NCBI GenBank assembly: GCA_030683995.1
Contig: JAUXPH010000009.1
Span: 1-43,955, forward strand
Direction: 5' to 3'
Source of the DNA: Lutibacter sp.
GTDB taxonomy: Bacteria > Bacteroidota > Bacteroidia > Flavobacteriales > Flavobacteriaceae
Length of the DNA stretch: 43,955 bases
Part shown: piece by piece, positions 13,497-31,221 of the stretch
How the letters are laid out: every line of letters begins with the position of its first letter
Position numbering within the stretch: the first letter of the stretch is position 1
The notes under the pieces: model-generated
The model's input: the letters and a program-made list of their open reading frames with translations, nothing else
What the model was told of the DNA's origin: nothing
Databases searched by the model: none
Made by a program: the position numbers and the translations under genes

Positions 13497-14912
13497 ATGA
13501 ACAATTCCATTATAAACGACACCATTATTGCTTTGGCCACCTCATCGGGTGTTGGCGCCATTGCGGTTGTTCGTTTATCGGGTGAAGATTCGATTGAAAT
13601 TGTAAATAAGTTTTTTGCTTCCAAATTCGGAAAAAAAGATTTAAACAAGGTAAAATCGCATACCATTCATTTGGGGAATATTGTGGACGGGAATCGCGTG
13701 ATCGATGAAGTTTTGGTTTCTGTTTTTAAGAATCCACATTCCTATACCGGTGAAAATGTGGTGGAAATCAGCTGTCACGGCTCTGTTTACATTCAGCAGG
13801 AAATATTGCAGATGTTCATCAAAAATGGCGTTCGAAGTGCCAATGCAGGTGAATTTACAATGCGCGCTTTTTTAAACGGCAAAATGGACTTGACCCAAGC
13901 CGAAGCGGTTGCCGATTTAATTTCCTCCAATTCTGCAGCATCGCACCAAGTAGCTTTGCAACAAATGCGCGGCGGTTTTAGCAATGAAATTAAAAACCTG
14001 CGTCAGCAATTGCTGAATTTTGCCAGTTTGATAGAATTGGAACTCGATTTTTCTGAAGAAGATGTTGAATTTGCCGACAGGGCTGAATTTAACCGACTGG
14101 TGGAAAAAATAAACTCGGTTTTAAAACGGCTGATAGATTCCTTTGCTTTGGGAAATGTGTTGAAAAACGGAATTCCGGTAGCGATTGTGGGCGAACCAAA
14201 TGTGGGGAAATCGACGTTACTGAACGCCTTGTTAAATGAGGAAAAAGCCATTGTGAGCCATATTGCAGGAACCACAAGAGATGCCATAGAAGATGAAATT
14301 GCCATAGACGGTGTTGCTTATCGCTTTGTGGATACGGCGGGTATCAGGACCACGGAAGATATCGTTGAAAGTCTGGGCATTCAAAAAACATTCGAAAAAA
14401 TTGAACAGGCGCAACTGGTTATTTATGTTTTCGATTTGGAAAAAATTAAAAACGGCCAACTTTCCCTTTCAGGAATTTTGGAAGAAATCAAAAAGATCAA
14501 AGACAACAATCCAAACAAACAATTGTTGATTATTGCAAATAAAGTGGATGTTGCCGATGCCGAATTGATCGACAAAACAATGGAAGCTTTTCAGCATGCT
14601 TCGCTCCTGTTTTTATCGGCCAAAGAGAAAATCGGGATTCATGAGCTCACCTCCACCCTCACCCATTTGGCCAACAAAGGCGCTTTAAGCAACAACGAAA
14701 CAATTGTAAGCAATTCTCGTCATTTTGAAGCCTTAAACAACGCTTTAAAAGCGATTAAAGAAGTGCAAAAAGGCATTGACAACAACATCAGCGCCGACTT
14801 GTTTGCCATCGACATCCGTCAGGCATTGTTTCATTTAGGAGAGATTACAGGCCAAGTCACCACCGAAGACTTGTTGGGGAATATTTTTGCTAATTTTTGT
14901 ATCGGAAAGTAA
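13497..14912 (+). CDS. mnmE: tRNA uridine-5-carboxymethylaminomethyl(34) synthesis GTPase
   Basis: 471 aa; with MnmG it modifies U34 in the wobble position of several tRNAs. The N-terminal domain starts DTIIALATSSGVGAIAVVRL; the GTPase domain is inserted in the helical domain with G1 GEPNVGKST (about 231-239), AGTTRDAIEDEI, G3 DTAGIR (about 278), and G4 NKVD (about 347). It ends in the invariant FCIGK, whose Cys is catalytic. The last 15 bases, including the stop, form attL of the integrated element, so the insertion leaves the protein intact. The 3' end of this gene (also called trmE/thdF) is a known integration site for other islands, for example SGI1. Confidence 0.97.
   Translation: MNNSIINDTIIALATSSGVGAIAVVRLSGEDSIEIVNKFFASKFGKKDLNKVKSHTIHLGNIVDGNRVIDEVLVSVFKNPHSYTGENVVEISCHGSVYIQQEILQMFIKNGVRSANAGEFTMRAFLNGKMDLTQAEAVADLISSNSAASHQVALQQMRGGFSNEIKNLRQQLLNFASLIELELDFSEEDVEFADRAEFNRLVEKINSVLKRLIDSFALGNVLKNGIPVAIVGEPNVGKSTLLNALLNEEKAIVSHIAGTTRDAIEDEIAIDGVAYRFVDTAGIRTTEDIVESLGIQKTFEKIEQAQLVIYVFDLEKIKNGQLSLSGILEEIKKIKDNNPNKQLLIIANKVDVADAELIDKTMEAFQHASLLFLSAKEKIGIHELTSTLTHLANKGALSNNETIVSNSRHFEALNNALKAIKEVQKGIDNNISADLFAIDIRQALFHLGEITGQVTTEDLLGNIFANFCIGK
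14898..14912. other. attL core
   Basis: TGTATCGGAAAGTAA, the last five codons of mnmE including its stop. Identical to 31207-31221. Similarity to the attR side continues imperfectly for another roughly 54 bp. Confidence 0.85.
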
Positions 14913-14977
14913 TTCATTAATACTTATTTGCTAACTATCTCTATTTCTTATATTTAAATAATTCTTTTAACATTTAT

Positions 14978-15066
14978 TTGTTGCCCATAACCACTTTTTA
15001 CGTTATATTTGTTGTCTATTTGTTGCCCAATGTGTGATTTTGTTGCCCAAATCTAAATGGCAACAA
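14978..15066. promoter_or_regulatory. Left arm-type integrase site cluster
   Basis: TTGTTGCCCA occurs at 14978-14987, 15020-15029 and 15040-15049, plus an inverted GGCAACAA at 15059-15066. The same word occurs once near the right end at 31157-31166. Repeats of this size at 65-170 bp from the core are what tyrosine-integrase arm domains bind (as in lambda or CTnDOT). Binding is inferred. Confidence 0.6.
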
Positions 15067-15131
15067 AATTGGCGAGATGATGCTACATAATGCTACACTT
15101 CGCAACATTACGCAACATAATACTACATATT

Positions 15132-15500
15132 ATGAGTAGCAATATGATGATTCCAAAAACCTGTTCTTATTGTGGTAAAGCCTTCGTAGCCAAGACCACC
15201 TTAACAAGATATTGTTGCCATAAATGCAACTCAAGACATTATAAGCAGAAAATTAAAGATGAAAAAATTCAAAAATCTTTAATTGAACAACAAAGCTTGC
15301 AAACATTGCAAACATTGCAAAAAAATAATCCAAATTCCTTAATATCAAAAAGCTATCTTTGTGTAAAAGAGGCTGCGGAATTAATCGGTGTTAGCAGATG
15401 GACAATAAACCGAATGATTAAACGTGGCGATTTACAAATTCATAAATTCGGCAGAAAGAAAATAATTCAACGTTCACAAATAGATAATCTTTTTAATTAA
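15132..15500 (+). CDS. Zinc-finger/HTH protein, probable excisionase or regulator
   Basis: 122 aa from ATG 15132 (MSSNMMIPKTCSYCGKAFVA); a longer frame from 15090 starts inside a repeat-rich stretch and adds no conserved residues. N-terminal zinc-ribbon-like motif CSYC...CCHKC, then a Lys-rich linker containing LQTLQTLQK (encoded by a 9-bp repeat), then a MerR/HTH_17-type helix-turn-helix: YLCVKEAAELIGVSRWTINRMIKRG, with KFGRKKIIQRSQIDNLFN. In Bacteroidota elements this arrangement directly upstream of an integrase usually means a DNA-binding directionality factor. It ends 5 bp before the integrase start, so the two are probably co-transcribed. Confidence 0.7.
   Translation: MSSNMMIPKTCSYCGKAFVAKTTLTRYCCHKCNSRHYKQKIKDEKIQKSLIEQQSLQTLQTLQKNNPNSLISKSYLCVKEAAELIGVSRWTINRMIKRGDLQIHKFGRKKIIQRSQIDNLFN
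15297..15320 (+). repeat. 9-bp-period TTGCAAACA array, copy set 1
   Basis: TTGCA begins at 15297, 15306 and 15315. The units encode LQTLQTLQ in the zinc-finger/HTH gene. The same period and core recur at 21213 and 22632 within this element. Confidence 0.65.
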
Positions 15501-15505
15501 TTGCT

Positions 15506-16612
15506 ATGAAAGTTACTTTAAGACAAAGATTAAAGGCTAATAAAATTAGCCTATATCTTGATTATTACAAAAGCGGTAAGCGCGAATATGAATATTTAGG
15601 ATTATACCTCATCCCAGATCCAGAAAAGGGCAAACTAACACAACCCCAAAAAGACGAAAACAAAAAAATTCTAAACTTAGCCGAAAGCATAAGATCAAAG
15701 CGACATTTAGAAATAAGAAATGGTTTTTATGATTTCAACGACCAAGAAAAGCTGAAAGGATTCTTCAGACTGTATATGCAAACCATTGCAGACACAAGAA
15801 TGGATAGCAAAGGAAATTATGGAAATTGGGACAGCGCCATAAAACATTTGCAAAAATACAATCCGAGAGATGTTTCATTTGCGCAATTGGATAGAAAATA
15901 TGTTGAAGGATTCCGGGAATATTTAAACAGTACAGCAAAAACGCCTGCAGGTAAATTATTATCTGATAATTCTGCCTGCTCCTACTTCAATAAATTCAAG
16001 GCAGCCTTAAAACAAGCTGTAAAAGAAGGTATCATAAGAAACAATCCAGCTGATCAGGTTGACAGCATACCACAAGGTGATAGCGAAAGAGCATTTCTTA
16101 CGTTCGAGGAACTTCAAAATATACTCAAACACGAATGTGAAATTCCAATCCTTAAAACTGCCTTTATTTTCAGTTGTCTAACAGGTTTAAGATGGTCCGA
16201 CATCAATAAATTAGTTTGGTCTGAGATACAGCATTCAAATGATTACGGTTATTACATACGTTTCAGGCAAAAAAAAACCAAAGGAGCTGAAACCTTACCA
16301 ATGTCAAACCAAGCAAGTGAACTATTAGGAGAAATTGGAGAACCGGAAGATAGAGTTTTTAAAGGTTTAAAGTACAGCGCCTGGCACAATCTAAAATTAC
16401 AACAATGGGTTATGAAAGCAGGTATTAGCAAAACAATCACATTTCATTGTGCAAGGCACACATATGCCACATTGCAATTGACTTTTGGTACAGATTTATT
16501 TACAGTTTCTAAATTATTGGGCCATAAAGATATTAGGACCACACAAGTGTATGCCAAAATAATTGATGAGAAAAAAATGGAAGCTGCAAATAAAATTATC
16601 CTCAATTTTTAA
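15506..16612 (+). CDS. int: Tyrosine-type site-specific integrase
   Basis: 368 aa. Catalyses integration and excision of the element at the mnmE att site. Domains: N-terminal arm-binding region (about 1-75), SAM-like core-binding region (about 80-185, with YMQTIADTRMDSKGNYGNWDSAIKHL across it), and catalytic domain (about 195-368). Catalytic residues are visible: Arg229 (CLTGLRWSDI), Lys259 region (KKTKGAETLPM), His314 and Arg317 (FHCARHTYA), His340 (LLGHKD) and the nucleophile Tyr349 (TTQVYAKI). It lies about 0.6 kb from attL, transcribed away from it. The next gene begins one base after its stop, so translation is coupled. Confidence 0.93.
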   Translation: MKVTLRQRLKANKISLYLDYYKSGKREYEYLGLYLIPDPEKGKLTQPQKDENKKILNLAESIRSKRHLEIRNGFYDFNDQEKLKGFFRLYMQTIADTRMDSKGNYGNWDSAIKHLQKYNPRDVSFAQLDRKYVEGFREYLNSTAKTPAGKLLSDNSACSYFNKFKAALKQAVKEGIIRNNPADQVDSIPQGDSERAFLTFEELQNILKHECEIPILKTAFIFSCLTGLRWSDINKLVWSEIQHSNDYGYYIRFRQKKTKGAETLPMSNQASELLGEIGEPEDRVFKGLKYSAWHNLKLQQWVMKAGISKTITFHCARHTYATLQLTFGTDLFTVSKLLGHKDIRTTQVYAKIIDEKKMEAANKIILNF

Positions 16613-16613
16613 T

Positions 16614-18197
16614 ATGCACAATATTAATTACTTATATCAGGGTATTAACCTCGTTACAATACCAGATATTATATATAAAGAATTATCAAAACACGGCGAC
16701 GAGAAAAGTTTTAAATCTTATAAAGATAAAACTGGGAAGCAGATAACAGAGTATGGAAATCTTATGCCTCCTTTTAAAACTTATTTTAATTACGGTGATT
16801 TTGGTTTTTGGTGTTTAGAAAAGTATTACAAAATTTTTCAGCTTTATTTAAAAAAAGGTCAATATTTTGATTTAGACTTAAATCAATTAAACGCTGAAAC
16901 TATTATGCCTTATTTAAATGAATACGCTAAGGGTTTTGAAGATGGCTATATATATTTTGAAGAAAAAATAAAACAAAAAAATAACATTTTTTCGATAACT
17001 AATGAGCAAATAGCTCATAAAGTTTTTTCAAGAATTTATGGTTTTGTATCAGTTGAAACTGGCAATTTTAAATATGGTGGCCTATCTAAAGAAACAGAAC
17101 AGAATGAACTAAAACAAAAATACAATATTGATTTTGTTTTTATTATAAAGAAAGACCTATTATATCAAAGTGGTTTTGGAGGTGGCGGTTTCTTCAAAGC
17201 CTGGGAAATTATACTAAATAATCCTACTTTATTTAAATCTATTTTTGAAGAAAATATAACTTATGTTGCTCCATCAATTATTAAAGAAGAAATAACAATG
17301 TTTTTTCCTCCTATGCATAAGGTATTTTTTGTTCATTATCAATGCGAAGACTTTAACATCGGCGAAAAAATTATAAGTTTAGGAATCTACAATAATGGCA
17401 AAGCAACACTGTTTTCTGTTAATGAATTAGAAAATATTATTTCATATTCAAAAACGGTAAATCAATTATTGGACGAAGGACTTATACTTGTTCACTGGAA
17501 TCAGGACAGACCCAACTTTGGCTCAGACCATATTAATAAAAGATATAATGAACTAACAGGATTAGTAAATACTTTAGACTACAAAAACTGTATAAACCTT
17601 GCTGAATTATTAATTAATAAATATGGTCAAGATTATATAGAACATCCAAGATTGGATAATCTAGCCAAAGCAAATCAATTTCACGGTATAAGGGAAACTC
17701 AAAAGAATGAAAAAATATTCGATACCAATAGATTATTACTATTATCTAAAATTTTTTTTAATGCATCAAAAGAAACACTAAAATTCAAATTAAATATTAA
17801 AAGTACTAATGTCGATGCAAAGCAAGAAATATCATTAACAAATTTCTATTTCAAAATTAATGCTGGTGCTTCAAAAAAAATTAAAGCATCTACTTTATTT
17901 GAAGCCCTCGAAAAAAATAATCACATTGACATTACTTCCAAAAATGATTTTATAAATGGATTCATTGGAAATGTTCCCGATAATAAAATAAATTGGAAAG
18001 GGAATTTTGGAGACTTGAAATCTTTTATTAACTATTCAATTAGTGAAAAACTTATTGAAAATGTTTCAAAAAAATGGGTTTATACAGCTAATTTTTTTAC
18101 GCATAATGGCATTCATTTTAATAATAACAGAATTAAAGATGCTGCAAGAACAATCAACGACGATAGTATAAAAAAAATAGTACGATCAATTTTATAA
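16614..18197 (+). CDS. Unknown protein with C-terminal module shared with the next gene
   Basis: 527 aa from ATG 16614, one base after the integrase stop (TAATATG); a longer frame from 16563 overlaps the integrase and is unlikely. No signal peptide. The middle contains SGFGGGGFFKAWEIILNN and FFPPMHKVFFVHYQCEDFNI, which I do not recognise. The last roughly 105 residues match the end of the next gene: FINGFIGN, KINWKGNFGDLKSFINY, SEKLIENV, RIKDAART, DDSIKKIVRSIL. The KxxW.G...DL pattern recalls, weakly, the C-terminal region of RteC-type regulators of Bacteroidota conjugative transposons. Translationally coupled to int, so a role in integration/excision control or as cargo is possible; function unknown. 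Confidence 0.7.
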   Translation: MHNINYLYQGINLVTIPDIIYKELSKHGDEKSFKSYKDKTGKQITEYGNLMPPFKTYFNYGDFGFWCLEKYYKIFQLYLKKGQYFDLDLNQLNAETIMPYLNEYAKGFEDGYIYFEEKIKQKNNIFSITNEQIAHKVFSRIYGFVSVETGNFKYGGLSKETEQNELKQKYNIDFVFIIKKDLLYQSGFGGGGFFKAWEIILNNPTLFKSIFEENITYVAPSIIKEEITMFFPPMHKVFFVHYQCEDFNIGEKIISLGIYNNGKATLFSVNELENIISYSKTVNQLLDEGLILVHWNQDRPNFGSDHINKRYNELTGLVNTLDYKNCINLAELLINKYGQDYIEHPRLDNLAKANQFHGIRETQKNEKIFDTNRLLLLSKIFFNASKETLKFKLNIKSTNVDAKQEISLTNFYFKINAGASKKIKASTLFEALEKNNHIDITSKNDFINGFIGNVPDNKINWKGNFGDLKSFINYSISEKLIENVSKKWVYTANFFTHNGIHFNNNRIKDAARTINDDSIKKIVRSIL

Positions 18198-18258
18198 CTT
18201 AAAATATTAAATCATACAATTAAAAGAAATTGCTAAACCAATTAAACTCAATTTTGAC

Positions 18259-19578
18259 GTGCAAAAACCATTTATAGAAATAGCGGCGAAGGATATGATT
18301 ATTTATCCTTCTGAAATTCAAAAACCGGAAGGATATGTATCTCCAATTAATTATCCTGATTGTTGTTTTGCTCACAGGGAAAATTTTAGATTATTAACAA
18401 CCTATTTAGATATATTTCCGCGATGCTGTGAAAGACACAAAGAGTTTTATAGAAAATTTAAATTTAACAAACATGTTGTTTATAAAGACTTTCCTATCAG
18501 AATTTTAAACACAGTTGAATACACACAATACCAAATATCGAATGTCATTAAAAATGATGATTGGTTTGAGGATATTTCAGAGTATCTGGAATATGCTGTA
18601 AGAAGTTTGGGTCAACCAGCAATTGGTTACCATATATTTTTGGAATTGATTGAATCATTTATTAATAATAAAAAATCTAAAATTCCTATAGATAAAAAGA
18701 AAGCTATTTTGCAATTGTTTGAAGAACAAAAAAATTATTCACCAAAAAAAGAAAAATCAGATTTAAACTTACTCTATGATATTTACAAAAGATGGTTAAA
18801 TTTTTTCCCGTTTGAATTATCATTTTATTCACATTTAAAGTCTAAACATTTTAGCACTTTACCATTTATAAAAGAAACCGTTAAATCAAACAGGTATCTT
18901 GGACTCGTATCATTTACAGTTGTAACACCTTCCGAATTAGTTGATTTCTTATTTAAAAAAACAGTTTCTATGCTGTCCTTAATAAATACAGTTGAATTGG
19001 TCAAAGAAGGCAAAATCGACAATGCAGAAAAAACCAAACTCGATTTTATTAACCATTCCCACCAACATAAACAAAAAATGTTGCTCGCTGCTTTTAGTAA
19101 AGGTGAAAAAAAATATATTAAAACAATAAAAGAATGGCTTGACAATGAAAAATATTTTTTTCAAGATATTGTTCCTATTATCAATCAAAAAAAATTGTCA
19201 TTAGAAGTAAGAACAAATACACACAAATATTTTCAAATTAAAGACAGTGCCTCACGCCATTATAAAGCAAATAGCCTATTTGATAAATTAGTCATTAAAA
19301 ATTATCTTGAAAATGGTTGTAAAGCAAATTTCATAAATGCTTTTACCGGTACAAAATCAAAAGACAAAATAAATTGGATTGGTGATTTTGGAGATTTAAA
19401 ATCATTCATTAAATATTGCGACTCTGAAAAATTATTTAACGATAGTACTGCTATTTGGGTTATTGCTTCTGAAGTATTCACAATTAAAAAAGTAAATTTT
19501 GTGGCAAAAAGAATTAAGGACACTAAAACAACGAAAAACGATTATAGCATAAAAAAGTTAGTGCAATCCATTTATTAA
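18259..19578 (+). CDS. Unknown protein, C-terminal paralogue of preceding gene
   Basis: 439 aa from GTG 18259, with no in-frame ATG upstream before a stop; the next in-frame ATG is 18295, at MIIYPSEIQ, and either could be used. The N-terminal part has several Cys residues (NYPDCCFAHRENF, IFPRCCERHKEFY). The C-terminal roughly 105 residues align with the preceding gene: FINAFTGT, KINWIGDFGDLKSFIKY, SEKLFNDS, RIKDTKTT, NDYSIKKLVQSIY. N-terminal parts look unrelated, so this is a shared module on two different proteins. RteC-like regulator is a weak suggestion. Followed by a strong terminator, ending the integrase operon. Confidence 0.65.
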   Translation: MQKPFIEIAAKDMIIYPSEIQKPEGYVSPINYPDCCFAHRENFRLLTTYLDIFPRCCERHKEFYRKFKFNKHVVYKDFPIRILNTVEYTQYQISNVIKNDDWFEDISEYLEYAVRSLGQPAIGYHIFLELIESFINNKKSKIPIDKKKAILQLFEEQKNYSPKKEKSDLNLLYDIYKRWLNFFPFELSFYSHLKSKHFSTLPFIKETVKSNRYLGLVSFTVVTPSELVDFLFKKTVSMLSLINTVELVKEGKIDNAEKTKLDFINHSHQHKQKMLLAAFSKGEKKYIKTIKEWLDNEKYFFQDIVPIINQKKLSLEVRTNTHKYFQIKDSASRHYKANSLFDKLVIKNYLENGCKANFINAFTGTKSKDKINWIGDFGDLKSFIKYCDSEKLFNDSTAIWVIASEVFTIKKVNFVAKRIKDTKTTKNDYSIKKLVQSIY

Positions 19579-19803: not shown

Positions 19804-20100
19804 ATGGAAGAATTAATTTTGCAAAAACTGAGTAACATCGAAACTATGTTACAAGAACAAAACCTATTAAAAAAAGATGTATTAAATTTCAATGAAACCT
19901 GCGCTTATCTAGACACAAGTGCTTCTAATTTGTATAAAATGACAAGCCACAAGCTAATCCCTCATTTTTGTCCACAAGGGAAGAAACTGTACTTTAAACG
20001 TGCTGAATTAGATGAATGGCTGCTAAGGAACCGCCAATCTTCAACAGAAGAAATAGAAACAATTGCCGCTAACTATTTATTAACCAATAAAAGAAAATAG
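19804..20100 (+). CDS. Helix-turn-helix (excisionase-family) protein 1
   Basis: 98 aa. N-terminal coiled-coil-like stretch (LQKLSNIETMLQEQNLLKK), then an HTH_17-type DNA-binding domain: LNFNETCAYLDTSASNLYKMTSHKLIPHFCPQGKKLYFKRAELDEWL. Proteins of this form are common in Bacteroidota mobile elements ahead of VirE-N/DUF3987 genes and are taken as replication/excision control proteins. It begins an operon with the next HTH gene (2-bp gap) and the primase-like gene. Confidence 0.8.
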   Translation: MEELILQKLSNIETMLQEQNLLKKDVLNFNETCAYLDTSASNLYKMTSHKLIPHFCPQGKKLYFKRAELDEWLLRNRQSSTEEIETIAANYLLTNKRK

Positions 20101-20102: not shown

Positions 20103-20381
20103 ATGGATTTTTACGAAAAAACAGAAAAAAAACTCGATAAAATTATCGATAGCGTGAACGAATTTGGTGCAAAAACAAAATTGGTTCAGAATGTAGATCC
20201 TAAAAATGTCTTTTTTGACAATCAAGAGTTCCTTCAATTAATGAATATAAGTAAGAGAACTAGCCAAATGTGGCGTGATACAGGATTCATTGGGTTTTCA
20301 CAACTTGGAAATAAAATTTATTATCGTCTGGAAGACATTCAAAATCTATTAAAGGAAAACTATAATCCTAAAAAATTATGA
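20103..20381 (+). CDS. Helix-turn-helix (excisionase-family) protein 2
   Basis: 92 aa. Coiled-coil start (YEKTEKKLDKIIDSVNEF), then an HTH_17-like domain with FFDNQEFLQLMNISKRTSQM and WRDTGFIGFSQLGNKIYYRL. Its stop overlaps the start of the primase-like gene by 4 bases (ATGA), so the two are translationally coupled. Same family as the preceding gene but clearly diverged; they may act as a pair or bind different sites. Confidence 0.75.
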   Translation: MDFYEKTEKKLDKIIDSVNEFGAKTKLVQNVDPKNVFFDNQEFLQLMNISKRTSQMWRDTGFIGFSQLGNKIYYRLEDIQNLLKENYNPKKL

Positions 20382-23149: not shown

Positions 23150-24397
23150 ATGAAATATATAGAAACTAAAGAGGAAATATTGTCCGTGGAACTACCACCT
23201 CAACTATCGCTTATTGATGATAGTATTGATGACGTTATTTTACCAAAATTAGACACTCTTAAAAATAATAAAACAAATAATCTTAACAAGTATGAATTGC
23301 ATATTAATGATGCCATTACTTTAAGCAGTAAACAGCTAATAAATAATACTGATGAGTTTCAATTAATTTATCTTGACCCACCATACAATACCGGTCGCTC
23401 AAGAGGGTCTAGAAAGCATTATAATGATAATTCATCAAGTTGGTCATCACATATTCAAAAAGTAGTTGTTAACAGCCATAAACTTCTAAAAAAAGAAGGG
23501 TTTTTAGTTTTCTCTATTAATCAAATGGAGTTATTTAATCTAAAAAGTATTTGTGATTCTGTTTTTGGGTCCGAGTGTTTTATAGGATTGTTTCCTGTAA
23601 AAATAAGACATAGTGAAAGACAGTTGATGATTAATGCTACTTATCACGATGTCTTCGAATATTTACTTTTCTACAGAAAACATAAACAAACTCGTTTTTA
23701 TACCGAACCAAAACACCCTAGAATTGAAAAGTTCGATTACCGGATTGAGACGTTAACTGAAAATCCAAGGAAAGAAATTATCAATGGAAAACAAGTTGAA
23801 ATATATCAACCAAACGAATACAAGATCGTAAAAGATAAGCCTAGTTTAAAAAATTTAAGGAGATATATTATCGCAGGAAAACTTGCCACAGCAAACTGGT
23901 CAGGTGAATGGTTCGAAAGTCATTTAAGGCAACTTGGAGAAAACTTACTTGTTAAAGTTCACGGTCTAGAAAATGAAGGGTTAGGCTATCGTTGGTTTCA
24001 TACACACAATGAAAAGAGACGTAGTGGTGTTTATTTCCAATCTTCTTTGACAGCAGGAAGACCCATACTTCCAACAAATGACTTAGATTTTACGGAAATA
24101 GTCCCAAATATTTATAAAGAAGGGGGTTTAGGTATTGACTTCAAAGACTCTAAAAAACCAGAACAACTTTTAGATTATATAATTTCTATAACAACTAAAG
24201 AAAATGACCTTGTTGGTGATTTCTATGGGGGTAGTGGAACTACTATTGCAAAGTGTATTAAAATTAATAGAAGTTGTATTACTGGCGATAATGGTTTAGA
24301 GTCTATCAAAATTATTTTGCAACGACTTTCCAACCTTAAAGAAGGCAAAGATATTTGTGGCATAAAATATAATTTCAATCTTGTTAACAATATTTAA
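23150..24397 (+). CDS. Site-specific DNA methyltransferase, beta class (N6-adenine or N4-cytosine)
   Basis: 415 aa. Motif IV LIYLDPPYNTG (about 73-82) comes before motif I GDFYGGSGTTIAKC (about 356-369), the order of beta-class amino-methyltransferases such as type III Mod and many type II enzymes. DPPY fits N6-adenine or N4-cytosine methylation. A long central region (about 150-330) is probably the target-recognition part. First gene of a four-gene operon, 9 bp before the next; it would protect host sites from the nuclease encoded downstream. LlaJI itself uses C5-cytosine methyltransferases, so this combination differs from that model system. The target sequence cannot be read from the protein. 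Confidence 0.88.
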   Translation: MKYIETKEEILSVELPPQLSLIDDSIDDVILPKLDTLKNNKTNNLNKYELHINDAITLSSKQLINNTDEFQLIYLDPPYNTGRSRGSRKHYNDNSSSWSSHIQKVVVNSHKLLKKEGFLVFSINQMELFNLKSICDSVFGSECFIGLFPVKIRHSERQLMINATYHDVFEYLLFYRKHKQTRFYTEPKHPRIEKFDYRIETLTENPRKEIINGKQVEIYQPNEYKIVKDKPSLKNLRRYIIAGKLATANWSGEWFESHLRQLGENLLVKVHGLENEGLGYRWFHTHNEKRRSGVYFQSSLTAGRPILPTNDLDFTEIVPNIYKEGGLGIDFKDSKKPEQLLDYIISITTKENDLVGDFYGGSGTTIAKCIKINRSCITGDNGLESIKIILQRLSNLKEGKDICGIKYNFNLVNNI

Positions 24398-24406: not shown

Positions 24407-25063
24407 ATGATAAACTATTTATTCCCGGGAAATACAATTCACACTTTATCAAGACCACAAACACCTGCTATTAAGTACACATCTTTAATTGACTTTACTT
24501 CAGAACAACTTATTGGAGCAGGTGGTCAGAATCCCATTAATGCAGGATCAAGTATGTTTGTGGACACTCCAAATCTCGAACCTCGGATCAAAGATTTAAT
24601 CAATGCACATTTTACGAAAGATAGTTATCTTTTCAAATATGGTCAAAGACCCATTGATAATGTTACAATGTTAGCTGCATTAAATTTTATTGATTTTAAA
24701 AATGACTTGGTAAAACGCCAAATAATTTTGGACCATATATTTGACCGCGAAACAAGAACATTTAAGAATGATATTTACGGGAGTTACATTTTTATTTTCA
24801 TTTCACTATACTTTGCTTTAAACTTTACTTTATTTAATAGAAACTCGACTCCACATTCAAAAATTATTGCAAATAAATATTTCAGTGATGAGACAGATTT
24901 ACTTAACAAAATTATTGATGCCCTTTATAATGCCCCAAATATTGAAAATCTAAATGCTTTATGTCACGGAAGATATTTTTTCATAGATTCAAAGCTCTGT
25001 GATTTCCAAGACTTTAAACCAGTTCCAATAAAAGTTATTGAACTCTTAAAAAACAACATTTAA
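24407..25063 (+). CDS. Unknown 218-aa protein of the restriction-modification operon
   Basis: I do not recognise a family. No signal peptide; one hydrophobic segment (YGSYIFIFISLYFALNFTLF, about residues 124-143) that could be a buried helix or a membrane pass. It starts MINYLFPGNTIHTLSRPQTP and contains FTSEQLIGAGGQNPINAGSS and GQRPIDNVTML. It sits between methyltransferase and GTPase with gaps of 9 and 3 bp, so it is made together with them and probably belongs to the system, perhaps as a specificity, assembly or control subunit. That role is inferred from position only. Confidence 0.75.
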   Translation: MINYLFPGNTIHTLSRPQTPAIKYTSLIDFTSEQLIGAGGQNPINAGSSMFVDTPNLEPRIKDLINAHFTKDSYLFKYGQRPIDNVTMLAALNFIDFKNDLVKRQIILDHIFDRETRTFKNDIYGSYIFIFISLYFALNFTLFNRNSTPHSKIIANKYFSDETDLLNKIIDALYNAPNIENLNALCHGRYFFIDSKLCDFQDFKPVPIKVIELLKNNI

Positions 25064-25066: not shown

Positions 25067-26023
25067 ATGTCATATAACAAAATATTTTTTGGTTCGCCAG
25101 GAAGTGGCAAATCGCACAAGGCGCAAGAATATGCTTTTGGAAAAAAGCAATTTACTGCAACATTTCACCCTGAATTTGATTATAACAACTTTGTTGGTTC
25201 ATATAAGCCATTATCAATAATTGATAATGGTACTAATAAAATTACCTACTCTTTTATTCCCCAATTTTTCCTAAAAGCGTATGTTGAAGCCTGGAAGAAT
25301 CCAGGGGAAGAAGTAGTTTTGATTGTCGAAGAAATAAATCGTGGTAATTGTGCCCAAATATTTGGAGATACTTTTCAACTTCTTGATAGAGATGATATTG
25401 GTTTCTCGAGATATTTTATAACTGTTGAAACTGAGATAGAAGCTTTTTTAAAAAATGAATTTGTAAATAGTGATTATGATGTTAAATTGCTCGATTTGTA
25501 TTTTCTTAAAAGAGGAACAAGAAACGTAAATCCTTTTTCTATTTTACTAATTCCATCTAACCTTACAATAATCGCTACAATGAACACTAGCGACCAATCT
25601 CTTTTTCCAATGGACAGTGCATTTAAAAGAAGATGGCAGTGGGAATATATCCCAATAAATTACGAAGATGCGTCAGCTTTTTCCTTAAAGATTGCTGGCC
25701 AAAATTACAATCTCAAAACATTTTTAAAAGCAGTTAATGAAAAAATTTACAGTATTACTGAAAGTGAAGATAAGCAAATAGGTAATCGATTTATCACCTC
25801 ACCCAATAACGTAATAGATGAAACTGAATTTGTTAATAAAGTAATGTTTTATTTGTGGTTTGATGTTTTTAAAGATGAAGATTTTAATCATAAGGATTAT
25901 ATTTTCAAATATACAGAAGGCCAAAATATAATTCCGTTTAAATTCTCCGACTTATTCAATGAAAATAAAGATAGTGTCCTAATCGGGTTCTTTGATAATT
26001 TGGGGGTTAAACCAGAAGTATAA
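25067..26023 (+). CDS. McrB-like AAA+ GTPase, restriction motor subunit (LlaJI R1 type)
   Basis: 318 aa, the AAA+ core without the N-terminal DNA-binding domain of classical McrB. Walker A GSPGSGKS (residues 9-16), the McrB-type FHPEFDYNNFVGSYKP (33-48), Walker B VLIVEEINRGNCAQIFGD (84-101), the GTP-specifying MNTSDQS (172-178, compare MNTADRS in McrB) and the arginine pair FKRRWQW (186-192). Such subunits form hexamers that hydrolyse GTP and drive DNA cleavage by an McrC/LlaJI-type partner; the next gene, one base away, encodes that partner. Target recognition must come from the nuclease subunit or the unknown 218-aa protein. Confidence 0.88.
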   Translation: MSYNKIFFGSPGSGKSHKAQEYAFGKKQFTATFHPEFDYNNFVGSYKPLSIIDNGTNKITYSFIPQFFLKAYVEAWKNPGEEVVLIVEEINRGNCAQIFGDTFQLLDRDDIGFSRYFITVETEIEAFLKNEFVNSDYDVKLLDLYFLKRGTRNVNPFSILLIPSNLTIIATMNTSDQSLFPMDSAFKRRWQWEYIPINYEDASAFSLKIAGQNYNLKTFLKAVNEKIYSITESEDKQIGNRFITSPNNVIDETEFVNKVMFYLWFDVFKDEDFNHKDYIFKYTEGQNIIPFKFSDLFNENKDSVLIGFFDNLGVKPEV

Positions 26024-26024
26024 T

Positions 26025-27734
26025 ATGCATTTATTAATCGAAGGTTATAGGTATGATAATAAGTTGCTTTCAACTTTATTGCCTGATAAATATATAACCG
26101 ATATAGGAAATGGTAGAGCATCGACTAATTTTGTAGGCTATTTCAACAGTTCTCAAAAAAGTGGGATGGTTTTAATTCTCCCTAAAATATTCCTTACTGG
26201 TGAATTTGTTTTCAATTCCGTTCCTGTTGTGGAATTGGCAAGTGAAAATTCATTTTCTATTTTGAAGAAATATGATAAATCAAAAACAGAAGCTGATTTT
26301 ATTTATACTTTCTCTCTTACTCTTTTCCTTTGTCTCAAAGAGTTTATTCAAAGAAATCCTGAAACAATAATTATTAATAAAGAAAAATTAAGAAGTATAA
26401 CGTCCAACCTTAGTTATTTCGAAAATACAGAGTTAGATTTAGTTGTTAGTTTATTACAATTCTATAAAAACAACAAATCTTTGATAACTTTTAAAGTAAA
26501 AACTAAACAATCAGAATTAGGAAGGCGTATAAGTTGGAATAAAACTGTAAACAAAACCCTTCCAGTATTTACTGAGAATGATTCGGTTGTATATTTTAAT
26601 CCAATTCAAAAAATAAAACACATAAATTATGAAGATGAATTACTACGTATTTTTTATTCAGTGCTTTTCAAATTTAAAACCGAATATGGTTTTAAGTTAA
26701 TTATTGATGAAAATTATAATATAATTACGGCAACCAATTTTTTAGCATTTGAGCTAAAAGCATTAAAAGTACTAAAGTCTTTAAAGCACAAATATTTTTC
26801 TGATAAATTTAAACATCTTTATAAGTTATTGTACCTCTACTTTCAGAAAAAAAGTGAATCTAATTCTAAAGCTGGTCTAGAAGAATTTATTTTATCAAGT
26901 AACTTTAATATCGTTTTTGAAAATATGATAGATAAACTTCTTTCAGATACAAAAAATATCGAAAAACTAAAATATCAAGCAGATGGTAAAATTGTTGACC
27001 ATATTTTTGAATTTAATTCATTGTTTAACCCTGATAAGATTTTTTATGTCGGTGACTCTAAGTACTATAAAGAAACAACTCAATACGGTGTAAACTCAAT
27101 ATACAAACAACATACTTATGCCAAAAATGTTATTCAATATAACATTAATCTTTTTAATACTGGCATATTATCTCATAATCTACGTTACCGCGACTCAAAA
27201 ACAGAAGGATATAACATTACCCCCAACTTTTTTATTCAAGCATTCATTGATAATAACAATCTTACAGACACGGCAGCTAAATTTCAAAACGACACTGCTG
27301 AAAAGGTAAAAATTAATTTTCAATTTAAGAATAGATTATTCGATAGAGATACTCTTATTATACATAATTTTAAAATCAATTTCCTTTTTGTAGTCCGTTC
27401 ATATTTAACTAAGGATGTTACACTATTAAGTTCTTTTAAAGCACATTCTATAAATTTCATACGCGAAAATATTTTAAACCATTTCCAAAATTATTACTCT
27501 TTTTTTATACTTAGTTCAATTATTCCAATCGATTCATTTATTGAAAAACATTTTAAAATACTAAATGGTAAGATTTATTCTTCATCAGAATTTGATTCAA
27601 GTCCTAATAGTATAATCTTGGCTATTAACAACCAACAAGAGTTTCTCGATGACAATGAAAAATTAATCAATATTATTCAGGCAGATTGTATTTTACAAAA
27701 AATTGACATTACAGTACCAACTAACCAATCATAA
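26025..27734 (+). CDS. LlaJI/McrC-like PD-(D/E)XK restriction nuclease subunit
   Basis: 569 aa from ATG 26025, one base after the previous stop (TAATATG); a longer frame from 25992 overlaps the GTPase gene. The nuclease core is Asp325 (GKIVDHIFEF) with Asp344-Ser-Lys346 (YVGDSKYYKETT), then IYKQHTYAKNVIQYN, the D...DxK...QxxxY pattern of LlaJI-type and McrC/DUF2357 nucleases. An N-terminal region (1-300) would contact the GTPase ring and DNA. Together with the McrB-like protein it should cut unmethylated target sites. A terminator follows about 110 bp on. The name LlaJI-like rests on the motif arrangement and the partner gene. Confidence 0.8.
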   Translation: MHLLIEGYRYDNKLLSTLLPDKYITDIGNGRASTNFVGYFNSSQKSGMVLILPKIFLTGEFVFNSVPVVELASENSFSILKKYDKSKTEADFIYTFSLTLFLCLKEFIQRNPETIIINKEKLRSITSNLSYFENTELDLVVSLLQFYKNNKSLITFKVKTKQSELGRRISWNKTVNKTLPVFTENDSVVYFNPIQKIKHINYEDELLRIFYSVLFKFKTEYGFKLIIDENYNIITATNFLAFELKALKVLKSLKHKYFSDKFKHLYKLLYLYFQKKSESNSKAGLEEFILSSNFNIVFENMIDKLLSDTKNIEKLKYQADGKIVDHIFEFNSLFNPDKIFYVGDSKYYKETTQYGVNSIYKQHTYAKNVIQYNINLFNTGILSHNLRYRDSKTEGYNITPNFFIQAFIDNNNLTDTAAKFQNDTAEKVKINFQFKNRLFDRDTLIIHNFKINFLFVVRSYLTKDVTLLSSFKAHSINFIRENILNHFQNYYSFFILSSIIPIDSFIEKHFKILNGKIYSSSEFDSSPNSIILAINNQQEFLDDNEKLINIIQADCILQKIDITVPTNQS

Positions 27735-28124: not shown

Positions 28125-28173
28125 TTATTTTACTTCACACATTACGCGTCTTACTCACGCACAGCTACTTTTG

Positions 28174-28220: not shown

Positions 28221-29054
28221 AAACCGCTGTTTAATAATTTGGCTCGCCTGCTGCTCGCTCGGGCTAAAAAAGGGTGTCACAGTTTTTGAAAGCACCATTT
28301 TGCATATGAAATAACCGTTGCAAGCACATATTTTATTCCGACAAACTACAAGTTTTATCTCACCAAGAATCTGATTAACTTCAAATATTACAACGGATTA
28401 TCACATATTGCAAACGCTCGCAAGAGCAAAGTATTCCGTTCATTGTTCCTCATTATGGCGCTCCGCAAATTGTAATTCAAAACATAATTTTCTAACCCAA
28501 TACCCAACAACAAAACAAAGCATTCAACTACCAAAGCGGAGCGCACACCACTCGTCACGCTTCACTACATAAATTGCCCTTGCCTTCCCCGACGCATCAA
28601 AAACACCGCCACCCTTGCGTGTACCACGTAGGCGTGGGACGCACTTATGCCGCTGGCAACGTGCTCTACCCACACCACCCTCGCTCAACTTCGCTGTCGG
28701 CTCGCGCAAAAATGCTCCTCATTTTTTGCTGCGCTGTGTTTAGTAATTTATAAGAGAAATTATAGGTATTACTTTCTAAGAAATATTCGGAATAAAAAAA
28801 TAAAAAAAGCAAGTAAAATTATTTGGCTACCATCATCCGACGCTATTGGCTATAAAGTTCAAGCCCTCCGGGTTTTTAAAAAAATCTCCACCCCAATATA
28901 AAAACGATTATAAAACAACATTTCAGTAGGGTTGTATTTTTTCAAAAAAACTTGACAGCCAGCCCACGCCAACAAGTAAACTACTTTCTTTTTTTCTTTT
29001 TTCTTTTAAAAATGATTTGTGAGCGAAGCGAAACATAACTTTAATTGCGTTATT

Positions 29055-29489
29055 ATGTCAACTTTTGAAATCAAAACACACCAGATCGGAAGAACCTATT
29101 CCAAACCACATTTTTTTATTCTGAATAAAGGCCTGAACAGTGGAAACCCGATGAAAAAACCCTGCCCGAATTGCTTTGTGCTGACCACACAAACCGATGA
29201 CGCACTGCAAACACTTTTCTACCTATGCCTGTCACTTAAAATAGGGCGTTATTTTGCCTACTATTTGAAAGGAAGCGTTATTCCGTTCATAACAATTAAC
29301 GACTGTTCTAAAGTGCTTAAATCTACTGATTCAAATCTTGACAGCCACCGGGAACAGCTGCAAAAACACATACAGATTATGAATCATATTCAACAAAAAG
29401 AGGAACTCTTAAAAGAAAATCTAAAATCAATTCAGCAGCTTAAAGTTGCTTTCGCACAAAGCTATTTTGCTCAGGGAAATAAATCATAA
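29055..29489 (+). CDS. DUF6943 family protein
   Basis: 144 aa from ATG 29055 (MSTFEIKTHQIGRTYSKPHF); a longer frame starts at GTG 29019 in repeat-like DNA. The pattern KPHFFILNKGLNSGNPMKKP and CPNCFVL, then a segment ending FAYYLKGSVIPFITINDCSK, is one I recognise as DUF6943, small proteins found in Bacteroidota mobile elements. A Lys/Gln-rich helical tail (about 105-144) may form a coiled coil. Function unknown. It follows the long non-coding region and faces a convergent gene, sharing a terminator hairpin. Confidence 0.75.
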   Translation: MSTFEIKTHQIGRTYSKPHFFILNKGLNSGNPMKKPCPNCFVLTTQTDDALQTLFYLCLSLKIGRYFAYYLKGSVIPFITINDCSKVLKSTDSNLDSHREQLQKHIQIMNHIQQKEELLKENLKSIQQLKVAFAQSYFAQGNKS

Positions 29490-29654
29490 ATATTTTAGAT
29501 TATGCAGATTGAAGTCAATTAATATTGTTTTCCTGACCCATATTCCCGAAATCTGAAACGACCTACTTAATGAGGATTGACTAACCTTTATTTCGCATTA
29601 ATATGTACCATAACCCGAACATAATTCACCATTATAGATAAATTAGCGCAAAAG

Positions 29655-29690
29655 AAAAAACCCTCTCAAAAGAAAGGGTTTAATTTTGAA
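29655..29690. terminator. Bidirectional terminator between convergent genes
   Basis: aaaccct (29658-29664) pairs with agggttt (29675-29681). On the minus strand the hairpin is followed by tttttcttttg, on the plus strand by aatttt, so it serves the leftward gene best and may also stop rightward transcription. Confidence 0.7.
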
Positions 29691-29722
29691 GTTTTAGCTT
29701 CTCAAAAAATGTCTGATTTCTT

Positions 29723-30526
29723 TTAGAAAACGTCTTGAATCTTTAATGCGTTACCGGCATTGAATAAATAGTAATTGGATCCTACCATTTGATAAAACTC
29801 AATTCCAATACTTCCCAAAACTGCAACATCAGCAGAAATTGTAGGTGATCCCGGTAAAGTTGCAGTTACATCAATCAATGTAGTTGCTGCATCTACTGGT
29901 GTGTAATCCGAATACGCAATATTTGACATTTCATTCAAAAGAGCATCTGCAGGTTCATAAGATCCTGTAGTTGGATTGTAAACAAAATCAGAAACAACCG
30001 ATAGCGCATTGATAATTCTAAAATGACTTGCTCCCGATGGAATGTTCAAATAGTTCAAAGGATTGAAAGCAGGAATACTTAAAGTACTTTCATTTTTGCC
30101 CACAACAGCAGTCAAAGTAAAGGGAGCATTGAATACACCATAAAATGAAATGTTACGGTTGAAATCCAAACCTTTTAAATATTGAGGTTGTTGGGAAACC
30201 AGAACGGCTCTTTGACCCCTGGCTTCTGAACCATCTTCAATATTTATTTTTTTCATAATTGCTGTTAGACGCCCGGTAAGCTGACTGTCTGACATTTGTT
30301 TCATCAAAGCAGATAAACCAGTTCTAAGTGCCTTTCCTGCATTCGCACAAGCTGCAAACTCAGCCATATTTTCTCGTGTACGAATAAAACTTGGGGCAGT
30401 TTTTACTTGTTCGCCAGTTGGTCCACCTTTTAATCCTGCAAAGTAACCTTGATTACCTTTAATTTTGAAGTGTCTAACTTCTCCTAATGTTCCGACATAT
30501 TTAATATGCCCCTTCTGTCTTGCCAT
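29723..30526 (-). CDS. Conserved Bacteroidota protein of unknown function (MARQKG type)
   Basis: 267 aa from ATG 30526. A longer frame begins at 30685, but its extra 53 residues are hydrophobic noise overlapping the divergent nuclease gene, whereas MARQKGHIKYVGTLGEVRHF is the start I know for this family. Conserved stretch: GNQGYFAGLKGGPTGEQVKT, APSFIRTRENMAEFAACANA, GKALRTGLSALMKQMSDSQL, TGRLTAIMKKI. The first half is basic and possibly nucleic-acid-binding; the second half is beta-rich. Many Flavobacteriia carry several copies. No function is known to me. It is divergent from the nuclease gene, about 100 bp apart. Confidence 0.75.
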   Translation of the reverse strand: MARQKGHIKYVGTLGEVRHFKIKGNQGYFAGLKGGPTGEQVKTAPSFIRTRENMAEFAACANAGKALRTGLSALMKQMSDSQLTGRLTAIMKKINIEDGSEARGQRAVLVSQQPQYLKGLDFNRNISFYGVFNAPFTLTAVVGKNESTLSIPAFNPLNYLNIPSGASHFRIINALSVVSDFVYNPTTGSYEPADALLNEMSNIAYSDYTPVDAATTLIDVTATLPGSPTISADVAVLGSIGIEFYQMVGSNYYLFNAGNALKIQDVF

Positions 30527-30632
30527 AAAAAATTTTTTTAAGTTAAATATATTTACTAAATTTACAACATAAAACGCTATAAATGAACAACTTATATAAT
30601 GCAAATTGATGCATTTTAACGCTAATAAACTT

Positions 30633-31100
30633 ATGAGAAGAAATATTATTCTTAATATCAAAAAAGTAGTAGATGGGGATGGCATTATTGCAGAGGATTT
30701 TCTAACTAAAAAAGAGTTTGAAGTTAGGCTTTATGGGATTGATGCTCCTGAAATGAAATATTGTGATAAAATCAAAAAAGATGAAAAAGAACTTCAAATG
30801 CCTGCTGCTTTACTAATAAAGCTGGGTTATTTATCATTTGAGTTTTTTAAAAGCAATATTACCATAGGGGAAAAATGCACTTTAGTCCAGGAAGAAAATA
30901 ACCATTTTGACAAATACGGCAGATCATTGGGGTATTTAATTTTAAGTAATGGAAGCTCATTGAATGAAATAATGATTAAAAAAGGCTACGCAAAGCCTTA
31001 TGACGCTGTATTTTGTGAAAACCTACCGTTATATCAAAAATGGAATTTAAGTGCTAAAAAATCATCAAAAGGACTTTATAAAATTGTAGATAATTTTTAA
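30633..31100 (+). CDS. Staphylococcal-nuclease-like (thermonuclease) enzyme
   Basis: 155 aa from ATG 30633 (MRRNIILNIKKVVDGDGIIA); in-frame ATG 30609 would add eight residues. Calcium-dependent nuclease fold: VVDGDGI, then FEVRLYGIDAPEMKY holding the catalytic Arg and, eight residues on, Glu, and DKYGRSLGYLIL holding the second catalytic Arg, so the active site looks intact. SLNEIMIKKGYAKPY is also typical. No signal peptide, so unlike secreted relatives it seems to stay in the cytosol. Last gene of the element, ending 107 bp before attR. May degrade incoming DNA or act in element processing; both are guesses. Confidence 0.85.
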   Translation: MRRNIILNIKKVVDGDGIIAEDFLTKKEFEVRLYGIDAPEMKYCDKIKKDEKELQMPAALLIKLGYLSFEFFKSNITIGEKCTLVQEENNHFDKYGRSLGYLILSNGSSLNEIMIKKGYAKPYDAVFCENLPLYQKWNLSAKKSSKGLYKIVDNF

Positions 31101-31144
31101 TATTTTTCATATATTTACACTGTATTACTGCTTCCTAAACCATT

Positions 31145-31168
31145 TTTGTTGGCTATTTGTTGCCCAAT
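31145..31168. promoter_or_regulatory. Right arm-type integrase site
   Basis: These 24 bases match 15008-15031 at the left end with a single mismatch, including TTGTTGCCCA (31157-31166). They lie 39 bp inside the attR core. Confidence 0.6.
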
Positions 31169-31206
31169 CTTCTATAAGCCCAATAGAATATAGCTTCGGT
31201 ACTTTC

Positions 31207-31221
31207 TGTATCGGAAAGTAA
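31207..31221. other. attR core
   Basis: TGTATCGGAAAGTAA, identical to attL. On this side it is preceded by ACTTTC, making an inverted pair ACTTTC/GAAAGT (31201-31206/31214-31219) around the probable crossover TGTATCG, as expected for core-type sites of a tyrosine recombinase. Confidence 0.85.

What the first reader, a model, noticed from the sequence alone, without database searches (positions are those of the whole stretch)
14898..31221. Integrative element defined by exact att repeats at the 3' end of mnmE
The 15-bp sequence ending mnmE is repeated exactly at 31207-31221, with an HTH gene and tyrosine integrase just inside attL. The insertion rebuilds the mnmE end (FCIGK plus stop). Integration at mnmE/trmE is known for SGI1-type islands of Gammaproteobacteria; here an unrelated Bacteroidota integrase appears to use the same gene end, suggesting convergence on the conserved FCIGK codons.
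Basis: partly seen in the sequence, partly recalled or inferred. Interest (0 to 1): 0.72.

Follow-up and report, generated by a model that had tools for sequence, protein, structure and literature searches.

The report
Mobile island inserted at mnmE end
A 16-kb mobile DNA island with likely virus-defence genes has inserted exactly at the end of a housekeeping tRNA-modification gene, beside the remains of an older island, and its insertion enzyme is a distant cousin of the one used at the same site by a well-known Salmonella island.

Summary
Observation confirmed; one main interpretation overturned. An 18-nt core (one wobble difference; 14895-14912 and 31204-31221) bounds a 16,309-bp element with an HTH gene, a tyrosine integrase and restriction-modification-like cargo in a Lutibacter-type genome. 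The repeat continues about 60 nt past the right core. That DNA is the left arm of a second, decayed element, so this is a stacked insertion and not a clean chromosome junction. The family is real. In 47 of 48 integrase relatives the core lies just upstream of the integrase, in 44 with mnmE present. A further core lies 10.5-41 kb away in 19 of 42 genomes. Right ends carry a TTACTTTC-TGTATCG-GAAAGTAA repeat, which places the crossover in the Cys-Ile-Gly codons. Convergence is contradicted: an SGI1-type integrase (enterobacterial mnmE, same core; unannotated contig) is 43% identical over 348 residues and groups among the Bacteroidota mnmE integrases, so the site was most likely inherited and carried between phyla. 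No empty site or circular form was seen for this insertion. Seven full-text searches listed no Bacteroidota mnmE island.

The parts
13497..14912 (+). mnmE (host target gene), last codons F-C-I-G-K-stop
   Evidence: ORF 471 aa; MnmE_helical, TrmE_N, MMR_HSR1
14895..14912 (+). attL core, 18 nt; inferred 7-nt overlap TGTATCG at 14898-14904, right half-site GAAAGTAA at 14905-14912
14913..15060 (+). P' arm: conserved CTTATTTGCTAACTA block and TATTTGTTGCCCA arm-type repeats (14975-14987, 15008-15031)
   Evidence: profile from 33 other loci hits 14923-14986, E 1.8e-5; repeats
15090..15500 (+). HTH_17 protein with a Cys-rich (Zn-ribbon-like, my reading) N-terminus, probable regulator/excisionase-like
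   Evidence: PF12728 E 1.5e-8; PHROG excisionase/regulator E 3e-12
15506..16612 (+). tyrosine integrase, 368 aa
   Evidence: PF17293, PF13102, PF00589; mnmE-linked clade
16614..18197 (+). hypothetical protein, C-terminus similar to next gene
   Evidence: (repeat D3); no Pfam match
18259..19578 (+). hypothetical protein
   Evidence: no Pfam match
19804..20100 (+). HTH_17 protein, conserved backbone, excisionase-like candidate
   Evidence: PF12728 E 1.9e-10; in 35 of 93 loci, some overlapping
20103..20381 (+). second small HTH protein, conserved backbone
   Evidence: PF12728 below cut-off; 34 of 93 loci
20378..22627 (+). BT4734-like_N + DUF3987 primase/helicase-like protein, conserved backbone
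   Evidence: 34 of 93 loci
23150..24397 (+). N6/N4 DNA methyltransferase (cargo)
   Evidence: PF01555 E 2.9e-28; PADLOC type III/II MTase
24407..25063 (+). hypothetical cargo protein in the methyltransferase/AAA cluster
   Evidence: no match
25067..26023 (+). AAA_5 McrB-like protein, restriction-enzyme-like (cargo)
   Evidence: PF07728; PADLOC REase_II E 4e-37; McrB model far below its cut-off
25992..27734 (+). hypothetical protein, possible nuclease partner of the AAA protein (inference from position only)
   Evidence: no informative match
29019..29489 (+). DUF6943 protein
   Evidence: PF22105 E 4e-49
29726..30526 (-). conserved right-end protein of unknown function, 267 aa
   Evidence: similar protein in 12 of the 17 right-end loci L099-L115; no Pfam, PHROG or NCBIfam match
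30606..31100 (+). staphylococcal-nuclease-like gene, conserved at right ends
   Evidence: PF00565 E 7e-15; in 11 of the 17 right-end loci L099-L115
31142..31168 (+). P arm: ATTTTTGTTGGCTATTTGTTGCCCAAT, 93% like 15005-15031
   Evidence: (D19)
31199..31221 (+). attR: left half-site GTACTTTC (31199-31206), overlap TGTATCG (31207-31213), right half-site GAAAGTAA (31214-31221)
31222..31282 (+). P' arm of a second, decayed mnmE element
   Evidence: 88% over 31207-31275 to attL; second-best profile hit in the window, 31232-31269, E 0.14; 87-88% to G021/G034 arms
31283..31299 (+). possible integrase-gene fragment of the second element (17 nt identical to 16276-16292)
   Evidence: weak, short match

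Best explanation
A 16,309-bp integrative genomic island is inserted at the 3' end of mnmE by its own IntCTnDOT-type tyrosine integrase. Shown by sequence: an 18-nt core at both ends, arm-type repeats TATTTGTTGCCC on both sides, the integrase adjacent to attL, and the same layout in dozens of relatives. Inferred: the integrase binds TTACTTTC- and GAAAGTAA-like half-sites and exchanges strands across TGTATCG, the Cys-Ile-Gly codons; the element then supplies the last codons and stop, so mnmE stays intact. The island sits upstream of an older related element of which only the left arm (31222-31282), and perhaps a scrap of integrase gene, is left. The integrase and its site share ancestry with SGI1-type islands. 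The cargo looks like a restriction-modification system. No relaxase was found, so passage between cells would need outside help.
For: Core repeat beyond chance. 93-nt repeat. Integrase domains. 44 of 48 integrase relatives lie next to mnmE, with the core at the mnmE end within 1 mismatch of the pattern and 170-643 bp from mnmE end to integrase (L079). Three of the other four have the core in place: L050 at a contig edge, L059 as second element of a tandem, L052 at a secondary site, 1 mismatch. Further core on the same contig and strand, nearest 10.5-41.4 kb away, in 19 of 42 genomes; 82 pattern hits against 15 for the reversed pattern. Tree clade 99/91 of 50 rows: 47 mnmE, 2 tandem/edge, 1 secondary site. 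In 296 Bacteroidota genomes, 30 loci fetched (one the window): 12 at mnmE, among them the 9 best-scoring. Left half-site at least 6 of 8 like TTACTTTC in 22 of 24 right-end cores and 5 of 45 left-end cores. SGI1-type integrase 43% identical over 348 residues.
Against: No relative with the exact empty site for this insertion. No reads, so no circular form seen. The P'-arm profile hit at 31232 is weak on its own (E 0.14 in the window alone; not reported at E up to 1 when the window was pooled with other loci). L081 (26% identity, Smithellaceae) has no core within 2 mismatches. The next three integrases by score after the top nine are not at mnmE. G+C is 0.27-0.34 in six of seven 2-kb steps inside, against 0.37-0.41 to the left but 0.34-0.38 to the right, so composition marks only the left border well.
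Confidence: 0.92

Rival explanations
1. The right-hand core is native: 31222 onward is the old mnmE 3' flank, and its likeness to the element's left arm is chance or a short local duplication, so the island is single and clean.
For: Only about 60 nt beyond the core are clearly similar; the integrase scrap is 17 nt; the profile hit is weak by E-value.
Against: Similarity is 88% over 69 nt and colinear with the core. A profile from 33 other elements' arms ranks this place second in the window. Cores followed by a further arm or integrase occur in L100 and L115. G021 has a solo arm between mnmE and its neighbour.
Confidence: 0.1
2. mnmE specificity arose independently (convergence) in Bacteroidota elements and in SGI1-type islands.
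For: Different phyla. mnmE linkage needs 5 changes on the tree, at least 3 forced by starred branches, so specificity can shift. Two of the four rows grouped with the SGI1-type row (L137, L138) are not at mnmE. The fork joining clade A, that group and the SGI1-type row is 96/85 with L249 but 92/78 without it.
Against: 43% identity over 348 residues. The SGI1-type row groups with mnmE-linked L133/L134 at 97/95, and a clade of window-type plus L133-L138 rows without it is disfavoured (p-AU 0.03, group chosen after seeing the tree). Same 18-nt core, and attL ends in GGGAAGTAA as reported for the SGI1 cluster.
Confidence: 0.15
3. The 16 kb is a chromosomal defence island grown by ordinary recombination, and the cores are incidental.
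For: Lutibacter G011 and G023 have defence genes between two cores with no integrase of this family detected.
Against: An intact integrase next to attL, arm repeats on both sides, conserved backbone genes, and an identical integrase and 150-nt right arm at 28.9-kb spacing in a Winogradskyella and a Polaribacter genome.
Confidence: 0.04

Closest known systems
Salmonella genomic island 1 and SGI1-related elements (trmE/mnmE/thdF)
   Same: Insertion in the terminal 18 nt of mnmE, integrase beside attL, last 9 nt of attL supplied by the element, tandem arrays and secondary sites reported (passages and section 17 of PMC9035990; passages of PMC6531882). An SGI1-type integrase is 43% identical over 348 residues and also stands near an HTH_17 gene.
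   Different: Different phylum, backbone (HTH, DUF3987 primase-like, SNase-like; no RepA_C) and cargo; no SGI1 transfer genes recognised.
MGIVchHai6-type islands at trmE
   Same: Same site; tandem integration downstream of SGI1-like elements reported (passages of PMC7449626).
   Different: Helper system (IncC/AcaCD) of Gammaproteobacteria; nothing of the kind sought or seen here.
IntCTnDOT-subgroup integrative elements of Bacteroidota (CTnDOT, NBU1)
   Same: Integrase subgroup and domain layout (PMC8138268 section 11).
   Different: Conserved 18-nt target in mnmE; no PF03432 relaxase in the window's genome.
dusA- and yicC-specific islands
   Same: Protein-gene target whose reading frame is preserved or restored (passages of PMC8409611).
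   Different: Other genes; dusA elements rebuild the 5' end.

Membership tests
Site-specific integrative genomic island (tyrosine integrase) | Direct-repeat att cores at both ends | tested here: met
Site-specific integrative genomic island (tyrosine integrase) | Tyrosine integrase gene next to one end | tested here: met
   PF00589, PF13102, PF17293; 597 bp after the mnmE end
Site-specific integrative genomic island (tyrosine integrase) | Same target recurs across independent hosts | tested here: met
   44 of 48 next to mnmE; further core in 19 of 42 genomes
Site-specific integrative genomic island (tyrosine integrase) | Empty site in relatives with the same right flank | tested here: inconclusive
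   None for this insertion. Three Lutibacter genomes share one right neighbour at about 165 bp, 3.0 kb and 12.6 kb from mnmE.
Site-specific integrative genomic island (tyrosine integrase) | Excised circle / attP junction | not testable with these tools
   no reads held
IntCTnDOT integrase subgroup | Arm-binding + SAM-like core-binding + catalytic domains of that subgroup | tested here: met
   that these Pfam models mark the subgroup is my reading of PMC8138268
SGI1-related elements | Insertion in terminal 18 nt of mnmE | tested here: met
   site definition from PMC6531882 passages
SGI1-related elements | Integrase of the SGI1 lineage | tested here: met
   43% over 348 residues to the L248 integrase and grouped with it. 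L248 is unannotated; I call it SGI1-type from its enterobacterial mnmE, core, HTH_17 and RepA_C genes. The similarity is distant; no SGI1 cluster was tested.
SGI1-related elements | SGI1 backbone (rep, sgaCD, mpsAB, transfer genes) | tested here: not met
   no such match among the window ORFs scanned; one 84-aa ORF (28647-28901) and smaller ones were not scanned; gene names from passages of PMC8409611/PMC9035990
Integrative mobilizable element (canonical, with relaxase) | Relaxase gene in the element | tested here: not met
   PF03432: none in the window genome and none within the elements of 18 other genomes by contig position; other relaxase families only through the Pfam scans of window ORFs

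The most novel reading that the evidence does not exclude
The last 18 nt of mnmE are an old integration site shared across phyla. One IntCTnDOT-type integrase lineage acquired mnmE specificity, diversified in Bacteroidota (clade A, the window type; the group of L133/L134; clade B in Lutibacter G012/G020/G024/G035, G153, G360, G100), and one Bacteroidota branch gave rise to the integrase of SGI1-type islands. The site persists because the FCIGK codons of MnmE are constrained, and successive islands stack there as defence arrays.
Probability: 0.65. Interest if true: 0.68.

Novelty: new variant of a known kind. Interest (0 to 1): 0.57.

Why it matters
The 18 bp that receive the best-known resistance island of enterobacteria are a busy insertion site across Bacteroidota, with arrays and defence cargo, and the integrases are kin. 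This suggests where the SGI1 integrase came from and makes it testable. The defined core could also serve as a landing site for neutral genetic tools in Flavobacteriales.

Tried and rejected
Considered and dropped: (1) that Lutibacter G012, G020, G024 and G035 are empty sites. They share a post-mnmE flank, but ORFs showed a divergent integrase (37-40% identity over the full gene) behind a Cys-rich/HTH gene, so they are occupied by a second lineage. (2) An empty site for the F. covae element: the right flank is a multi-copy repeat. (3) An empty site for the Polaribacter element: the right-flank gene is found in many congeners, but mnmE lies within none of the 19 loci checked, one of them the element's own genome. 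(4) Getting SGI1 integrase through E. coli mnmE neighbourhoods: the three split sites opened held another gene and no island. (5) Plasmid collection: 60 of 104 records seen, none enterobacterial. (6) I first wrote that SGI1 integrase could not be obtained. (7) Naming L248 by a longer match: none in E. coli genomes; one Salmonella plasmid record shares 722 bp, unnamed genes. (8) viral contigs: no relative of the integrase. (9) Rfam on 14000-32000: nothing. (10) The neighbour of mnmE in G005/G021/G023 is not in the window at that place; best match in the genome is 32% on another contig. (11) The Cys-rich motif upstream, in its looser form, was found before 35 of 62 mnmE-linked and 5 of 22 other integrases, so it is not diagnostic. 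(12) L145 (G364): no core within 2 mismatches in 20 kb, unexplained. No structure prediction or fold search was run.

Rows left out of counts: one search dropped four short integrase frames (L048, L077, L078 and a second match in L121) and skipped matches under 150 residues such as L079. One search did not include L122 (two further cores in G100). The reduced trees used 38 of 79 earlier rows plus 4 to 6 new ones. The arm profile left out 11 loci with a short leader.
Full report
Observation. The 15-mer is present twice in the window and exactly twice in the 3.08-Mb genome. Reading both sides shows an 18-nt core, TTYTGTATCGGAAAGTAA, with one synonymous difference, spaced 16,309 bp. mnmE is intact and ends FCIGK. 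G+C is 0.27-0.34 in six of the seven 2-kb steps wholly inside (0.37 in 28001-30000), against 0.37-0.41 to the left and 0.34-0.38 to the right. No tRNA or Rfam family explains the repeat.

Host. The window is from a Lutibacter-type genome.

Right of the second core. The repeat does not stop at the core: 88% identity runs over 31207-31275, in total 93 nt at 83%. That stretch matches the integrase-side arm of the element. A profile from 33 other loci's arms hits the window best at 14923-14986 (E 1.8e-5) and second-best at 31232-31269 (E 0.14), right after the core; pooled with other loci the second hit is not reported at E up to 1. The stretch is 87-88% like arms in Lutibacter G021 and G034. Seventeen nt at 31283 equal part of the integrase gene, a weak match. 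I conclude that the island sits in front of the remains of an older relative. The glycoside-hydrolase, SusD and SusC genes at 31493-43353 (names beyond the first gene are my reading) may be native or the older element's cargo; none of 36 relatives searched, 22 of them congeners, shows their first 3 kb.

The family. Forty-eight integrase relatives were found. In 44, mnmE lies directly upstream in the same orientation, with the core at its end and 170-643 bp to the integrase (L079). The four others: L050 begins at a contig edge inside the mnmE end; L059 is the second element of a tandem; L052 has its core, one mismatch, inside an MFS-transporter-like gene, a secondary site which suggests that the core itself is recognised; L081 is a 26% relative with no core. 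Hosts span several Bacteroidota families; one contig is titled as an actinobacterium (L048), perhaps a binning error. In a sample of 296 genomes of the phylum, 42 had a relative at E 1e-40. Of the 30 loci fetched, the window included, 12 lie at mnmE, among them the nine best-scoring; the next three do not.

Boundaries and arrays. The core pattern gave 82 hits in the 42 genomes behind named loci, against 15 for the reversed pattern. In 19 of 42 a further copy lies on the same contig and strand, the nearest 10.5-41.4 kb from the mnmE copy; two Winogradskyella genomes have four in line. Many contigs end too soon to show a right end. Right ends share a P arm with TTTGTTGCC-type repeats. After the right core comes another arm in L100 and another integrase in L115. 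An identical integrase with an identical 150-nt right arm and 28.9-kb spacing occurs in a Winogradskyella and a Polaribacter genome, which points to recent transfer; I did not compare the full 28.9 kb.

Crossover. The five bases before the right-end core are TTACT in 13 of 24 cases and NNACT in 18 of 24; before the mnmE-side core CTAAT is commonest (13 of 45). At least 6 of 8 matches to TTACTTTC occur in 22 of 24 right ends and in 5 of 45 left ends. So the element carries an inverted repeat, TTACTTTC-TGTATCG-GAAAGTAA. I infer 8-nt half-sites and a 7-nt overlap covering the Cys-Ile-Gly codons. The Winogradskyella/Polaribacter pair fits: core position 9, inside the overlap, is C/T in opposite order at the two ends. 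For SGI1 the site is the terminal 18 nt of trmE and the last 9 nt of attL come from attP (passages of PMC6531882; section 17 of PMC9035990): the same geometry.

Kinship with SGI1. Two phage-labelled wastewater contigs (L247, L248), probably host DNA, hold an mnmE that is 93-95% (amino acids) and 83% (DNA) identical to that of E. coli, the core TTCTGTATTGGGAAGTAA and the same integrase; in L248 the integrase has 405 aa, starts 204 bp after mnmE and is followed by HTH_17 and RepA_C genes. The last 9 nt, GGGAAGTAA, are those reported for the SGI1 cluster, and one record's host is Salmonella Kentucky, a serovar in which SGI1-K is known (abstract of PMC11237444 in the listing). The contigs are unannotated, so "SGI1-type" is my identification. 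This integrase is 43% identical to the window's over 348 residues. In trees it groups with Bacteroidota integrases L133, L134, L137, L138 at 97/95 (with L249 added 98/95), two of the four being at mnmE. That group joins the window clade at 96/85 with L249 and 92/78 without. Holding the SGI1-type row outside is disfavoured (p-AU 0.03; group chosen after seeing the tree; long branch). PMC8138268 (section 11) already lists SGI1 recombinases in the IntCTnDOT subgroup with Bacteroidota integrases. Common descent is therefore much the better reading. The direction, Bacteroidota to enterobacteria, is suggested by nesting and depends on the root, which was set only at the midpoint.

Cargo and mobility. 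Counts over 93 loci, some overlapping the same DNA and many short: HTH gene 42, integrase 56, the two small HTH genes 35 and 34, DUF3987 gene 34. Of 17 right-end loci, 11 have the SNase-like gene and 12 the unknown protein. Variable cargo here is a methyltransferase with an McrB-like AAA protein and two unknowns, most simply a restriction-modification system; this is inference. No PF03432 relaxase is in the window genome or, by contig position, inside the elements of 18 others.

Hot spot. Three Lutibacter genomes share the same right neighbour (TolC-like by my reading) at about 165 bp (G021, a solo arm), 3.0 kb (G005) and 12.6 kb (G023) from mnmE. G011 has Cas10, Cas7/Cas5-like, a reverse transcriptase and Cas1 between two cores; G023 has a type IIG restriction enzyme there. 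Of the 30 congener mnmE loci, seven, the window included, carry the window-type integrase. Four genomes (G012, G020, G024, G035) carry a second integrase lineage, 37-40% identical. In a 42-row tree the window clade has 18 of 18 rows at mnmE (95/88) and the second clade 7 of 8 (97/90); mnmE linkage needs 5 changes, at least 3 forced by starred branches.

Comparison and novelty. The mechanism is that of a known kind, and site and integrase are those of the SGI1 lineage; backbone and phylum differ. Stacking and decay match the accretion model reviewed in PMC5704250 (passages). Seven full-text searches (one search showed 20 of 64 papers) listed no Bacteroidota island at mnmE/trmE/thdF; the Bacteroidota island paper they raised concerns an Arg-tRNA site (PMC6764341, passages). 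A search for target-site surveys led to one whose main text has neither mnmE nor trmE (PMC12884075, passages). The library lacks most subscription journals.

Noticed in passing
window 31493-43353: Trehalase/GH-like, alpha-amylase-like, GH31-like, SusD- and SusC-like genes, all on the minus strand, right of the decayed arm. Names beyond the first gene are from reading the translations.
   Followed up: partly
L247, L248 (records OR845421, OR850969): Phage-labelled wastewater contigs that hold enterobacterial mnmE plus an SGI1-type left end; probably host DNA in phage preparations.
   Followed up: yes
L249 (record MT837961): Gut phage-labelled contig with an mnmE 49% identical to the window's, a core ending in TGA and an integrase 44% identical to the window's.
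   Followed up: partly
L093 (G011), 4820-17725: Type III-D-like CRISPR-Cas genes with a reverse transcriptase and Cas1 lie between two mnmE cores, with no integrase of this family detected.
   Followed up: partly
L091 (G023), mnmE end to +12.5 kb: Type IIG restriction enzyme and a PDC-S06/PrrC-like protein between two cores, no integrase of this family detected; similar genes directly after mnmE in G026 (L085).
   Followed up: partly
L241-L244 (G012, G020, G024, G035): A second, divergent mnmE-linked integrase lineage with TGTACC arms in the same genus.
   Followed up: yes
L052, 9357-9374: Secondary-site insertion into an MFS-transporter-like gene at a fortuitous core-like sequence.
   Followed up: yes
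window 29726-30526 (-) and 30606-31100 (+): Divergent pair (unknown 267-aa protein and SNase-like nuclease) conserved at many right ends; distant homologues of the unknown also right of the core in L104 and L109.
   Followed up: partly
window 27850-29000: About 1.1 kb inside the element with raised G+C and no clear gene or Rfam match.
   Followed up: partly
L107 (G095, Flavobacterium covae), 1-1270: The DNA right of the element is a multi-copy repeat family in that genome.
   Followed up: no
L163-L165 (E. coli): In 9 of 60 sampled E. coli rows the match stops at or next to the mnmE stop; in the three opened, a gene annotated as an effector family member follows. Described only.
   Followed up: no
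L239 (G018): An arm-like scar after mnmE is interrupted by an IS3-type transposase pair (named from reading the translations).
   Followed up: no
L245 (G364 contig 299): Two related integrases on one contig with no core within 2 mismatches in the first 20 kb; target unknown.
   Followed up: partly
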